Assembly (NCBI RefSeq): GCF_001189845.1 | Contig: NZ_LFLZ01000001.1 | Coordinates: 327,852 to 391,851, forward strand | Source of the DNA: Bradyrhizobium tropiciagri | Lineage (GTDB): Bacteria > Pseudomonadota > Alphaproteobacteria > Rhizobiales > Xanthobacteraceae | DNA length: 64,000 nucleotides | Direction of reading: 5' to 3' | Part shown: piece by piece, positions 28,052 through 30,445 of the stretch | Layout: each line of letters starts with the position of its first letter | Position numbering within the stretch: position 1 is the stretch's first letter | Notes under the pieces: generated by a model | Database searches by the model: none | What the model was told of the DNA's origin: nothing | The model's input: the letters and a program-made list of their open reading frames with translations, nothing else | Program-made: the position numbers and the translations under genes

Positions 28052-29376
28052 TCAGTGCATCGTCTGTTCCGACGCTGCGATCCAGGCGATGACGGCCTCG
28101 GAGAAGCCGTCGACCCGGGTCCACGGGCCGTGTCCGACGCCGTGCTGGTAGGACGCCACGTTGACCATGTAGCCACGTCCCTTCGGGGCGGGCACCTGGT
28201 CGTGGCTCTGCTCGTCGGTTAAGACGATCAGGCGATCGCCCTTGCGGTCGATCTGCGTCACCGCCTTGCCGAGATACGTCCCGCCATGCGGCTGCGCGCC
28301 GATGATCGCATCGCGCAGCGCGAAGCCGCGGCGCGGCGGCAGCTTCACGACCTCATTGCTGAACGTGAAGATCTCCACCTCGTCGCAGACTCGCGGGCGA
28401 GAATCGCAAGCCCGCAGGCCGCCTCCGCCCGCGTCATCTCGGATTGGGCCGAGAGCGGCGAGAACATCGATCCCGACACGTCGATCAGGAGCCGCGTGCG
28501 GCCGTCGAGCCGCGCGTAGTCCTTGACCGACTTCAGCATCGCTGCCTCGAGCTCCGGCTCGAAGTCCGGCGCATAGCGCGCCGCCGTGATGAAGCGGTAG
28601 GGCAGGATGCGGTCGGTCCGCATCGCGTCGATCGCCTCCGCGATGGTCCGGCGCGGCACCTCCGCCTTCTGCATCAGGCGCAGGTTGCGGAGCAGCGCCA
28701 GCCCGCCGAGCCGGTTCTCGGCGATCAGCCGCTCGAAGGTCTCACGCTTGTCCTTGCCGGACGACAGCGAAACCTCCCAGGTGTCGGGCGAGGCCAGCTC
28801 GCCGTCGACGAGCTGCTTCCACACCTTCTCCTGCGCGGTGTCCTTCGGCTTGGCGTGGACCAGGAACAGCACGTCCTTGATCCGCACCGCGCCGTCGCGA
28901 TCGTACTTCGCGAGCTGGTAGGCGTCGAACTTGGTCAGCGCCCGCGCCAGGCCCTTCTTGATCTGCGCCGAGACGGGCTGACGCTTGCGCTGCTGCTGAG
29001 GGCCGAGCGCATCCGCCCAATAGATCGCAAGCAGCTCGGTCATCTCGTCCGGCCGCTGGATCACCCGCGCCAGCGTATCGGCGACGAGGGCGCGATGGGC
29101 CGGATGCCGCGCCATCTCGCGAACCACGAGCAGCGGCGCGTGCCGCAGCTTCATGGTCTCGCGCGCAGCGATGGCGAGTTCGGCCGTGCGCTCGGGCGCG
29201 ACCAGCGGCACCAGCGCCTTGATGCGATCGGCGATCGCAACCCCGTCCTCGTAGAACTGGCTCTCCCACAGGAGGCAGTTCAGCAGCGCGCGCCGCAATT
29301 CCATCTCGGGCGTGAAGCGCTTGCCGCGCGCACCCTCACGGGTGAAGGCGCGCATGATCTTGTTGATCGTGGCCAT
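28052..29376 (-). pseudogene. rsr: Ro60/TROVE-domain RNA-binding protein (Rsr), one frameshift
   Basis: A strong GGAGG precedes the ATG at 29376. Residues 1-290 are the TROVE HEAT-repeat ring (RALLNCLLWESQFYEDGVAIADR, ARETMKLRHAPLLVVREMAR). Then a von Willebrand A domain has the MIDAS set D299-x-S-x-S (LLIDVSGSM), GGTYLG and LTDEQSHD. The reading frame slips near 28388 (+ strand 28385-28392); adding one G gives LAILAREVCDEVEIFTFSNE, with the C-terminus read from 28378 to 28052. The composite is about 441 residues, shorter than Deinococcus Rsr or human Ro60. Ro proteins bind Y RNAs and misfolded RNAs. Four Y-RNA-like units lie directly upstream on the same strand. Confidence 0.87.
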
Positions 29377-29416: not shown

Positions 29417-29542
29417 GCCGGGGAACTCGCGAGGCTGGACCGCCCACCGAAGGGCTTACGTGCTCTACCACTGAGCTACGAACTTTCGTTCGGGAGGATT
29501 CGAACCTCCGACACCGAAGTAACAGCGCTCTTCACCACCGGC
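29417..29542 (-). ncRNA. Bacterial Y RNA (YrlA-like), unit 1: permuted tRNA mimic
   Basis: 126 bases on the minus strand, 40 bases before rsr. The 5' GCCGG (29542-29538) pairs with the 3' CCGGC. Inside, in order: the conserved 5' box GTGGTGAAGA and TTACTTCG, a T-arm GGAGG-TTCGAAT-CCTCC, a stem CGAAC-GAAA-GTTCG (an acceptor-like stem closed by a GNRA tetraloop), then a D-arm GCTC-AGTGGTA-GAGC, and the 3' box TCGCGAGTTCCCC. The tRNA halves are in reversed order, so no mature CCA end is possible. This matches the known design of YrlA: a Ro-binding stem plus a tRNA-mimic module. Confidence 0.82.
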
Positions 29543-29551
29543 ATTGACGGA

Positions 29552-29715
29552 CCACGACCCGGGAACAGGCGATTGCTGAGACCACGGCCAGCCAAGGCCG
29601 GCCGGGTAGCGCTCTATCCGCTGAGCTACCGGTGCACATGACACCGGGCGGGATTCGAACCCGCGACCTCTCGTTTCAGAGACGATGTAACAGCGATCTT
29701 CACCACGGGGCGTGG
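29552..29715 (-). ncRNA. Bacterial Y RNA (YrlA-like), unit 2
   Basis: 164 bases. The outer stem CCACG/CGTGG continues as CCCG/CGGG. 5' box GTGGTGAAGATCG and TTACATCG. T-arm GCGGG-TTCGAAT-CCCGC. Acceptor-like stem CCGGTG-TCATGTG-CACCGG, with a 7-base loop instead of a tetraloop. D-arm GCTC-AGCGGATA-GAGC. 3' box TCGCCTGTTCCC. It has the longest acceptor mimic of the four (6 bp). Confidence 0.82.
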
Positions 29716-29719
29716 AAGG

Positions 29720-29850
29720 GGTCGGCGGGGAACAAGCGATGCTGTTGCTGCCCTTGCGGGCGAACCGCCTTTCGGCGTGCGGGCCTCGAACCCGCTCGGC
29801 GCCGTAGCGCCTTACCACGAAGTAACAGACATCTTCACCACCGCCTGACC
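29720..29850 (-). ncRNA. Bacterial Y RNA (YrlA-like), unit 3, reduced D-arm
   Basis: 131 bases. Outer stem GGTC/GACC plus GGCGG/CCGCC. 5' box GTGGTGAAGATGTC and TTACTTCG. T-arm GCGGG-TTCGAGG-CCCGC. Acceptor mimic CGCC-GAAA-GGCG with a GNRA tetraloop. The D-arm is reduced to GCCC-GCAA-GGGC and lacks the AGTGGTA loop. 3' box TCGCTTGTTCCCC. Confidence 0.78.
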
Positions 29851-29878
29851 GACGCAACTGCGCCGGCCGTTGATAGGT

Positions 29879-30063
29879 ACGCTGGGGAACTGGCGATATC
29901 GGTGTCAGTGACGACAACACAGCCGCTCGCCTTGCGGACGAGAGACTGCGCCGGGCCGCACGCGGACCTTTGCCAAGCCACATCCCGGTGCGTGTGTCAC
30001 AGGCGGGATTCGAACCCGCTCTTTCCGGTGGAGCGAAGTATCCGACATCTTCACCACCAGCGT
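29879..30063 (-). ncRNA. Bacterial Y RNA (YrlA-like), unit 4, most diverged
   Basis: 185 bases, promoter-proximal in the array. Outer stem ACGCTGG/CCAGCGT. 5' box GTGGTGAAGATGTC and ATACTTCG. T-arm GCGGG-TTCGAAT-CCCGC. No clean acceptor or D-arm; instead a longer hairpin arm with GCAC...GTGC flanks and extra sequence before the 3' box TCGCCAGTTCCCC. It either binds a different partner or is decaying. Confidence 0.7.
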
Positions 30064-30302
30064 CGGTTGAGCCGCGGTGATGCGGCAAACCGTTTTGAAA
30101 AAGTTTCGTCGCGGCACAGTCGACGCGCCGCATATTGCGAACTCCTCGGAGTTCGCTCTGCCATCGGTATCCGGCTCATCGCCTCGTTCCCTCCGGCAGG
30201 CCCCGCGCGCTTGGGCACGCGCGTCTCCGCGCGAGCCCCGGGATCCGGGTCTCCCGTTCCGGCTTGCGCCGGGCAGTTCAGGTGAGCCTTGCTGCGGACA
30301 AC
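30064..30302. other. Intergenic region upstream of the Y RNA array
   Basis: 239 bases between unit 4 and the sRNA terminator. No convincing ORF on either strand. It should hold the minus-strand promoter for the Y RNA/rsr unit, but no clear -35/-10 pair stands out. Confidence 0.4.
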
Positions 30303-30445
30303 AAAAAACCCTCCGGAGCAGCTGGCTCGGGAGGGTCCACATTGATTGCGGACTGTCGACCTCGCGCTATGCGAGGTCGCTCCCATGAGCCGGGCACACG
30401 CTGTCGATCGGCCGCAGGCCGTTCGACAGTTGGCGGAATCTTTCA
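30303..30445 (-). ncRNA. Candidate structured small RNA ending in an intrinsic terminator
   Basis: Read on the minus strand there are three successive hairpins: CTGTCGA/TCGACAG with inner CGGCC/GGCCG (30401-30429), GACCTCGC-loop-GCGAGGTC (30358-30378), and a terminator CCCTCC/GGAGGG (30309-30335) followed by TTTTTT (30303-30308). A 34-codon ATG ORF begins in the minus strand near 30471 and ends inside the second hairpin; it lacks a ribosome binding site. It is probably a trans-acting RNA or a leader. It lies directly upstream of the Y RNA array on the same strand. Confidence 0.6.

What the first reader, a model, noticed from the sequence alone, without database searches (positions are those of the whole stretch)
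29417..30063. Four tandem Y RNA-like genes upstream of a Ro60 gene
Four units of 126-185 bases lie head to tail on the minus strand directly before rsr. Each has a 5' box (GTGGTGAAGA), a 3' box (TCGCnnGTTCCC), a TTCGAA T-arm and a closing stem. This is the layout of bacterial Y RNAs (YrlA class), known to tether Ro60 orthologues to nucleases. I know of no description of a four-copy array with graded loss of tRNA features, so a set of Y RNAs with different partners is possible.
Basis: partly seen in the sequence, partly recalled or inferred. Interest (0 to 1): 0.93.

Follow-up and report, generated by a model that had tools for sequence, protein, structure and literature searches.

The report
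Four-slot Y RNA array, permuted tRNA
Upstream of a Ro60 gene in a Bradyrhizobium genome lie four tandem RNA units whose order is kept in relatives that carry the gene; they are likely Y RNAs that Ro60 would hold, and one of them is predicted to fold as a complete tRNA with its parts in rotated order, anticodon arm included, often (in relatives) beside an RNA-repair ligase gene.

Summary
Four head-to-tail units (29417-30063, minus strand) precede rsr. A box pattern finds four units before rsr in 63 of 78 loci; it hits 72 of 77 TROVE genomes and, once each, 3 of 188 genus genomes without TROVE. Each unit's nearest relative in another genome is the same slot, 232 of 232. Proposed stems covary in slots 1, 2 and 4, least clearly in 4. 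Slot 1 has the Rfam YrlA architecture. Slot 2 goes further: its pieces, rejoined in tRNA order, give a full ARAGORN tRNA in 27 of 27 rows (shuffles 0 of 540), so it is a predicted circularly permuted tRNA with an intact anticodon arm. U33 is frozen (73 of 73) while the triplet changed at least 32 times. Related units occur in other alphaproteobacteria, Acidobacteria and phages; in three of eight phage records one is labelled tRNA. rtcB follows rsr in 39 of 80 loci, but the window's genome has no RtcB and its rsr frame is broken. No transcript, Rsr binding or partner was tested. New variant of a known kind.

The parts
29417..29542 (-). Unit / slot 1 (next to rsr): YrlA-type permuted tRNA mimic, Ro-type basal stem in place of the anticodon loop
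   Evidence: Boxes; 99.4% of cells paired on 31 rows; Rfam YrlA 36.7 bits, below cut-off
29462..29509 (-). Slot 1 tRNA-like module: T arm 29493-29509, closed acceptor 29479-29492, D arm 29462-29476
29553..29714 (-). Unit / slot 2: predicted complete circularly permuted tRNA plus Ro-type stem and a variable hairpin (29584-29605)
   Evidence: 97.2% of cells paired on 27 rows, 10 pairs with double changes; ARAGORN on rejoined pieces 27 of 27
29670..29686 (-). Slot 2 anticodon-arm hairpin (7-nt loop 29675-29681, triplet 29677-29679 = CTG)
   Evidence: Stem pair col 37:45 is CG 10 / UA 10 / AU 7 of 27; U33 in 73 of 73 units
29648..29664 (-). Slot 2 T arm
29629..29647 (-). Slot 2 acceptor stem, 7 bp, closed by a 5-nt loop
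   Evidence: 98.4% of cells paired, one pair with double changes
29611..29626 (-). Slot 2 D arm
   Evidence: never varies, so no covariation
29724..29845 (-). Unit / slot 3: T arm and acceptor-like hairpin, D arm missing here
   Evidence: Sequence; form varies between relatives, at least 18 changes; covariation not tested
29879..30063 (-). Unit / slot 4: Ro-type stem, a T-stem-like hairpin (30003-30019) and a long conserved non-tRNA domain
   Evidence: 96.6% of cells paired on 30 rows; no D-arm motif in 58 of 58 loci
30067..30420 (-). Conserved leader upstream of the array, with (by eye) a terminator-like hairpin and T run
   Evidence: Found in 72 of 72 array genomes; its upstream part lies before rtcB in rsr-less relatives
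28345..29376 (-). rsr (Ro60 orthologue), reading frame interrupted; TROVE domain present
   Evidence: Pfam TROVE 60.2 bits; interruption
28052..28390 (-). C-terminal part of rsr in another frame
   Evidence: tblastn places residues 330-441 of a relative's Rsr here

Best explanation
The locus is predicted to encode four Y RNAs that likely share one Rsr (Ro60) docking stem but would present four different effector modules. Shown by sequence and comparison: a common 5'/3' box pair in every unit; slot-specific closing stems; four slots kept in relatives; a YrlA-type tRNA mimic in slot 1; a predicted complete permuted tRNA with anticodon arm in slot 2; a shape-shifting slot 3; a conserved non-tRNA domain in slot 4; loss together with rsr by deletion. 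Inferred: each RNA is cut out of one transcript through its own closing stem and binds Rsr through the boxes. The tRNA-shaped slots then bring tRNA-binding partners (PNPase, as in the described Rsr-Y RNA-PNPase machine, or tRNA maturation and repair enzymes) to the Ro ring, and slots 3 and 4 bring others. The ring thus works with interchangeable adaptors inside an RNA-repair module (array-rsr-rtcB) that the window's own species seems to have partly lost.
For: Units before rsr: four in 63, five in 2, three in 5, two in 2, one in 2 and none in 4 of 78 loci. Box hits in 72 of 77 TROVE genomes; of 188 others, 3 have one hit each: two deletion relics (G162, G163) and one chance-like (G136). Same-slot nearest neighbour 232 of 232; own closing arm best in 215 of 232. 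Covariation above shuffles. Slot 2: T and D motifs in 58 of 58 loci; rejoined pieces called tRNA in 27 of 27, 0 of 540 shuffles and 0 of 54 halves; its single-sequence fold shows all four arms. rtcB about 1.4-1.5 kb behind the rsr start in 39 of 80 loci. TROVE and RtcB: 63 both, 14 and 54 one, 134 neither, Fisher p 1.7e-15, kinship not corrected, RtcB paralogues lumped. Leader in 72 of 72 array genomes and, in 11 rsr-less genomes, 279-442 bp before an RtcB match.
Against: No transcript, binding or partner evidence. No unit reaches the Rfam cut-off. The window's rsr frame is broken and no RtcB is found in its genome, so the system may be decaying here, or the break may be an assembly error. No sigma-70-like promoter or sigma-54 site was found. 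For slot 4, sliding the partners by -2 columns gives nearly as many double-changed cells (25 against 28), though only 40.9% of cells pair; for slot 1 the +3 slide gives 6 double-changed pairs against 5. Slot 1 lacks the T-arm motif in 5 of 58 loci and slot 3 varies widely; in single-sequence folds slot 1's D arm does not form. 188 of 265 genus genomes lack TROVE. Related units lie on a contig without rsr in G043.
Confidence: 0.6

Rival explanations
1. Slot 2 (and similar units elsewhere) is chiefly a decoy or bait for anticodon nucleases: a tRNA shape with a correct anticodon loop, held by Rsr beside the repair ligase RtcB, would absorb or report tRNA cleavage.
For: Anticodon-loop rules are kept (U33 73 of 73, purine at 37 in 72 of 73) while 19 triplets occur, none a stop anticodon. 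rtcB lies next to rsr in 39 of 80 loci. A published passage suggests that YrlA might competitively inhibit the RecA-dependent anticodon nuclease (PMC7790460, passages). Phages carry related units.
Against: Triplet positions change 16-19 times, no more than the other variable unpaired columns (10-20), which fits absence of constraint as well as an arms race. The same paper reports that fragments of YrlA were not detected, so it is not a substrate of that nuclease. The window genome has no RtcB.
Confidence: 0.2
2. The anticodon arm of slot 2 is only an inherited structural prop: the RNA came from a tRNA, the fold is kept for the elbow that binds the partner, and the loop has no job.
For: The triplet drifts; T arm, D arm and the conserved D-loop and T-loop letters hardly change.
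Against: U33 never changes on a tree where the other six loop positions change 4-21 times, so the loop conformation seems selected.
Confidence: 0.3
3. The units are ordinary tRNA genes or tRNA pseudogenes in an array near rsr.
For: ARAGORN calls tRNA-Gln at 29640-29713 and gives a native-order call in 10 of 27 slot 2 rows. In G043, related units sit among 15 ARAGORN tRNA genes.
Against: Acceptor and D-arm pairing is in rotated order, with a double-changed acceptor pair. Rejoining is needed for calls in 27 of 27. Slots 3 and 4 lack the D-arm motif here. Shared non-tRNA boxes in all units.
Confidence: 0.04
4. The array is a relic of a lost RNA-repair module in this species, without present function.
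For: rsr frame interrupted, no RtcB in the genome; relatives show deletions of different extent.
Against: In the window the boxes of all four units are exact and the stems of slots 1, 2 and 4 are formed save single pairs. Ten other array genomes also lack RtcB, and 76 of the 77 other oriented rsr loci have an open frame of at least 400 codons. The draft assembly may carry an error.
Confidence: 0.25

Closest known systems
YrlA bacterial Y RNAs (Rfam RF02553)
   Same: Next to rsr; basal stem of paired ends; T arm, closed acceptor and D arm in that order; slot 1 has the Rfam consensus architecture
   Different: No unit reaches the Rfam cut-off. The end sequences differ from the Rfam consensus. 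Slot 2 keeps a separate anticodon hairpin that the Rfam consensus lacks; slots 3 and 4 lack the D arm here; four slots
S. Typhimurium rsr-yrlBA-rtcBA RNA-repair operon (PMC7790460, passages read)
   Same: Y RNAs, rsr and rtcB side by side in many relatives
   Different: Array upstream of rsr, four RNAs instead of two, no sigma-54 site seen; rtcB absent from the window's genome. A Rhizobium plasmid has the order rtcR, rsr, Y array, rtcB
Rsr-Y RNA-PNPase complex (RYPER) of Deinococcus (PMC8394870, passages read)
   Same: A Y RNA as tether between the Ro ring and an effector is the model used here
   Different: No binding data here; a set of four RNAs would allow several effectors
Permuted tRNA genes of algae and archaea (recalled)
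   Same: 3' part of the tRNA precedes the 5' part
   Different: Here the break lies between D and anticodon arms and carries a Ro-type stem; nothing here shows rejoining to a tRNA

Membership tests
YrlA / bacterial Y RNA | Encoded beside an rsr (TROVE) gene | tested here: met
YrlA / bacterial Y RNA | 5' and 3' ends form a basal stem with conserved boxes | tested here: met
   Closing stem and Ro-type stem paired in 96-100% of cells in slots 1, 2 and 4; slot 3 by closing-stem energies only
YrlA / bacterial Y RNA | tRNA-like domain with T, acceptor and D arms | tested here: inconclusive
   Met for slots 1 and 2 in the window; D-arm motif absent in slots 3 and 4
YrlA / bacterial Y RNA | Score above the Rfam RF02553 gathering cut-off (69 bits) | tested here: not met
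   Best 40.3 bits
YrlA / bacterial Y RNA | RNA is made and binds Rsr | not testable with these tools
   No expression or binding data
YrlA / bacterial Y RNA | Substrate of tRNA modification enzymes (DusA, TruB) | not testable with these tools
   Only the conserved T-loop and D-loop letters are seen
RNA-repair operon (rsr-Y RNA-rtcB) | rtcB next to rsr | tested here: not met
   Not in the window, none in the genome; met in 39 of 80 loci of relatives
RNA-repair operon (rsr-Y RNA-rtcB) | RtcR and a sigma-54 promoter | tested here: inconclusive
   No -24/-12 pattern upstream; RtcR not searched
Ordinary tRNA gene | Acceptor, D, anticodon and T arms in linear order | tested here: not met
   Order is anticodon, T, acceptor, D in slot 2; a weaker native-order call exists in the window

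The most novel reading that the evidence does not exclude
Bacteria and phages encode a second, so far unrecognised class of Y RNA: a complete tRNA cut open between D and anticodon arms and grafted onto a Ro60-binding stem. It serves as a swappable mock tRNA that lures anticodon-cleaving or tRNA-handling enzymes to a Ro60-RtcB repair station, as one member of a multi-RNA adaptor set.
Probability: 0.25. Interest if true: 0.85.

Novelty: new variant of a known kind. Interest (0 to 1): 0.66.

Why it matters
Y RNAs have been predicted in many bacteria (PMC12282133, passage), but their function was studied in Deinococcus only, as of a 2020 paper (PMC7790460, passage). A kept four-slot set turns 'what does the Y RNA recruit to Ro60?' into a comparison of four natural modules in one genus. 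Slot 2 would be a natural tRNA with everything but a free end, whose loop keeps U33 while the triplet drifts: a clean tool to ask who reads anticodon-arm shape. The frequent rtcB neighbour and the presence in phages tie Y RNAs to tRNA damage and repair. Some phage 'tRNA' annotations beside rsr should be revisited.

Tried and rejected
Ordinary tRNA array: rejected because the arm order is rotated and slots 3-4 lack the D arm here. Rfam identification at curated cut-off: no family in the window; weak YrlA scores alone mean little, since YrlA hits at E up to 1 ring in 13 of 14 control genomes, none over the cut-off. Positive selection on the anticodon-like triplet: considered, not supported, because other variable unpaired columns change as fast. 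Sigma-54 control: no site found. Plasmid origin: 7 weak plasmid matches covering 9% of the array. Weak model matches (35-40 bits) at four places in genus genomes turned out to lie on tRNA-Asn genes.

Prior literature: the key primary papers (PMC4201824, PMC6047535, PMC6281776, PMC3646564) are not held. Searches listed no paper that I recognised as reporting an anticodon-armed Y RNA or a four-RNA array; I saw listings and, of six papers, passages. From recall, the 2014 paper says that at least one Y RNA per species has the tRNA-like domain, so several Y RNAs per species are known.

Rows left out: slot alignments used near-duplicate-filtered rows of the 58 four-unit main-clade loci. Slot 1: 31 of 37 (left out: L063, L088, L107, L111, L122, L126, which lack the T-arm or D-arm motif). 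Slot 4: 30 of 35 (left out: L051, L071, L072, L090, L122, short forms). Slot 2: 27 of 27, one (L094) cut short by my parser, kept, left out. Slot 3 was not tested for covariation. The structures were drawn after looking at the same alignments (slot 4 partly by RNAalifold on them), which favours them. The scan required U33 and a purine at 37, so its counts say nothing on loop conservation; one search did not constrain the loop, but did ask for a stem pattern. The 33 loci given to besides the window were picked, most because they had shown units.

Full report
What is there. On the minus strand of the window, four units lie head to tail directly before rsr: slot 4 (30063-29879), slot 3 (29845-29724), slot 2 (29714-29553) and slot 1 (29542-29417), then the rsr start at 29376. 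Each unit carries GTGGTGAAGA at its 5' side and TCGCnnGTTCCC at its 3' side, both exact. Rfam gives nothing in the window at curated cut-offs. At relaxed thresholds YrlA (RF02553) matches slots 2 and 1 at 40.3 and 36.7 bits and slot 4 at 15.9 (cut-off 69); sub-cut-off hits also ring in 13 of 14 control genomes, so these are supportive only with the synteny. ARAGORN calls one tRNA-Gln inside slot 2.

rsr and surroundings. The ORF 28345-29376 has the Pfam TROVE domain. Its frame is interrupted near residue 329: the rest of the protein lies in another frame. Of the 77 other oriented rsr loci only L081 has an open frame shorter than 400 codons. An intact relative (L093) also shows a weak Ro60 vWA match, 21.2 bits against a cut-off of 27.7. 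The window's genome is a draft, so an assembly error is possible. The two next genes upstream are a LysR-type regulator and an MFS transporter. No RtcB is found in the whole genome.

Is it conserved? TROVE is present in 77 of 265 genus genomes, the window's included. I fetched 78 loci around the TROVE genes of the other 76 and one from a genome of another family (G043). Two of these 79 (L087, L095) encode a different TROVE type that the Rsr query does not match. Among the remaining 77 and the window, a box pattern finds four units in 63, five in 2, three in 5, two in 2, one in 2 and none in 4 (L058, L059, L081, L106); a few counts are low because of contig ends, N runs or diverged boxes. Over whole genomes the box pattern (up to 1 mismatch) hits 72 of the 77 TROVE genomes and, once each, 3 of the 188 others; the reversed pattern hits once, in G163. 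G162 is a relic with half of slot 2, all of slot 1 and the last 30 codons of rsr before an intact rtcB. G163 holds the leader and the start of slot 4 joined to the middle of rsr, again before rtcB. G136 has one mismatch and no rsr trace in the stretch fetched. G097 keeps the leader, without array, rsr or rtcB in 6 kb. In these genomes array and rsr were lost together by deletion. Units with diverged boxes elsewhere would escape this pattern.

A case that does not fit neatly. In G043 the slot 2 model finds units at up to 71.4 bits on contig C223 (8.1 kb), which carries 15 ARAGORN tRNA genes and no match to Rsr or RtcB queries; its only TROVE gene found is on C110 (9.5 kb), also among tRNAs and with two units of its own. 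The two contigs may or may not adjoin.

Four slots, not four copies. For 58 main-clade loci with four units, the nearest unit in another genome is the same slot in 232 of 232 cases. Each slot has its own closing stem; the unit's own 3' arm is the best partner for its 5' arm in 215 of 232 cases, which would keep tandem units from mispairing (inference). T-arm plus D-arm motifs are found in 46, 58, 13 and 0 of 58 loci for slots 1 to 4. Slot 3 comes in full, middle and minimal forms (19, 29 and 10 loci) that change at least 18 times on the rsr tree.

Structure. On 27 slot 2 sequences, 44 proposed pairs are formed in 97.2% of cells (shuffled 92.9%, slid structures 28-45%), with 58 double-changed cells against 16.6 in shuffles. 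Slot 1: 99.4% (31 rows, 29 double-changed cells against 6.1). Slot 4: 96.6% (30 rows, 28 against 9.6). Against this: a few shuffles reach the observed number of double-changed pairs or pair types in slot 2 (3 of 500 each) and of pair types in slot 1 (8 of 500); slot 1 slid by +3 has 6 double-changed pairs against 5; slot 4 slid by -2 has 25 double-changed cells against 28, though only 40.9% of cells pair. Shuffling does not keep kinship, so these figures are not probabilities, and the structures were drawn on the same alignments. The single-sequence fold of slot 2 shows the anticodon, T, acceptor and D arms; in slot 1 the D arm does not form. The array with part of its leader folds better than all 20 shuffles (z -2.8). 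In slot 1 the proposed order is T arm, closed acceptor, D arm, inside a short stem that stands for the anticodon stem and runs into the Ro-type stem, as in the Rfam YrlA consensus: a tRNA opened in its anticodon loop. That short stem has letters in 22-23 of 31 rows; the window is among those with a gap there.

Slot 2 is different. Before the T arm stands a hairpin with a 4-5 bp stem and a 7-nt loop; one stem pair occurs as CG 10, UA 10 and AU 7 of 27. Order: anticodon arm, T arm, acceptor 3' strand, short loop, acceptor 5' strand, D arm. Put into tRNA order in a script, these pieces are called a full tRNA by ARAGORN in 27 of 27 rows; native order gives 10 of 27, shuffles 0 of 540, single halves 0 of 54. 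So slot 2 reads as a complete circularly permuted tRNA, opened between D and anticodon arms. Across 73 such units in 70 of 78 loci, loop position 33 is T in 73, position 37 a purine in 72, and the triplet takes 19 values, none a stop anticodon. On the rsr tree the triplet changed at least 32 times, position 33 never, the other loop positions 4-21 times. Triplet positions change about as often as other variable unpaired columns: the triplet looks free, the loop shape held.

Wider occurrence. A covariance model of the slot 2 tRNA module (26 rows) was run on the window and 33 picked loci: the best match reaches 45 bits or more in 28 of the 33, among them Hyphomonadaceae and other alphaproteobacteria, Acidobacteria and phages. 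The score alone does not prove the anticodon hairpin. In 41 genomes the ten array genomes score 99.9 bits or more, the 15 other genus genomes at most 40.1, and order-level genomes at most 37 apart from G043; the four genus places checked at 35-40 bits lie on tRNA-Asn genes. A separate scan found a T-acceptor-D unit within 1.5 kb upstream of rsr in 46 of 46 named Bradyrhizobium-titled loci (many the same genomes as above), 20 of 33 others and 6 of 8 phage loci, with an anticodon hairpin in 46, 11 and 2; one of the two phage hairpins (L221) looks spurious, while the unit next to that phage's rsr shows one by eye that the scan missed. Shuffles gave none, and 1.5 kb downstream of rsr 0 of 79. A complete Hyphomonadaceae chromosome (L199) shows at least five units by eye. 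Rsr matches 80 phage records; of the eight fetched, three have a GenBank tRNA feature overlapping such a unit (Kikimora tRNA-Ser, 10KY502B tRNA-Thr, CcrColossus tRNA-Gln).

Link to RNA repair. rtcB lies about 1.4-1.5 kb behind the rsr start in 39 of 80 loci; three more show it near 3.45 kb at the edge of the stretch, one (L127) a distant relative at 32% identity, and one is the relic L132. Genus-wide, 63 genomes have both TROVE and RtcB, 14 TROVE only, 54 RtcB only and 134 neither (kinship not corrected, RtcB paralogues lumped). Eleven array genomes, the window's included, lack RtcB. A leader of about 350 bp before the array (30067-30420) is found in 72 of 72 array genomes. In 16 genomes without TROVE parts of it remain, 15 of them with RtcB; in 11 the leader match ends 279-442 bp before an RtcB match. 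This suggests one regulon. The leader's hairpin with T run is seen by eye; the terminator scan did not list it, and no sigma-54 or sigma-70 pattern was seen. A Rhizobium plasmid shows the order rtcR, rsr, a Y array, rtcB.

Mechanism. Shown: anatomy, slot conservation, covariation, joint deletion with rsr, frequent rtcB neighbourhood. From papers (passages only): in Deinococcus, Y RNA tethers Rsr to PNPase; the YrlA tRNA-like domain is a substrate of DusA and TruB; Salmonella has rsr-yrlBA-rtcBA, and its YrlA gave no fragments under the induced anticodon nuclease (PMC7790460; PMC8394870). Inferred: the boxes dock each RNA on Rsr, and the inserts recruit different partners. Not tested: expression, binding, partners.

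Limits. The genomes are one per species and unnamed, apart from the named set, which overlaps them. The co-occurrence and covariation controls ignore kinship. Two of the three covariation sets left out diverged rows, named in Tried and rejected. Novelty could not be checked against the main primary papers, which are not held.

Noticed in passing
window 30067-30420 (-): Strongly conserved leader with, by eye, a terminator-like hairpin and T run; in rsr-less genomes its upstream part sits 279-442 bp before an RtcB match, and five genomes (G118, G186, G245, G276, G283) have two copies, one at array-rsr and one near a separate RtcB match.
   Followed up: partly
L221:1766-1840, L222:1292-1359, L224:728-795: GenBank tRNA-Ser, tRNA-Thr and tRNA-Gln features beside phage rsr genes overlap permuted Y RNA units, so these labels are probably wrong.
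   Followed up: partly
L230:500-2900 (-) (G043:C223): Units with Y-type boxes and permuted tRNA modules, with CCA after the acceptor strand, lie among 15 ARAGORN tRNA genes on a contig without rsr.
   Followed up: partly
L087 (G149) and L095 (G165): A different type of TROVE gene lies among many tRNA matches in about 7 kb, with a YrlA-like match beside it.
   Followed up: no
L220: Rhizobium beringeri plasmid pRlX3: rtcR, rsr, about five YrlA-type units (by eye) with ends like the Rfam consensus, rtcB.
   Followed up: partly
L058 and L106: A second Rsr type (about 48-50% identity) has, by eye, roughly three units with a different 5' box (GCCGTAG...TTACTTCG) upstream.
   Followed up: no
L227: Bacteroides phage crAss001 encodes a TROVE protein; no permuted unit was found upstream of it.
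   Followed up: no
window 28052-29376 (-): rsr frame interrupted near residue 329, and no RtcB in the genome: partial loss of the module or an assembly error.
   Followed up: partly
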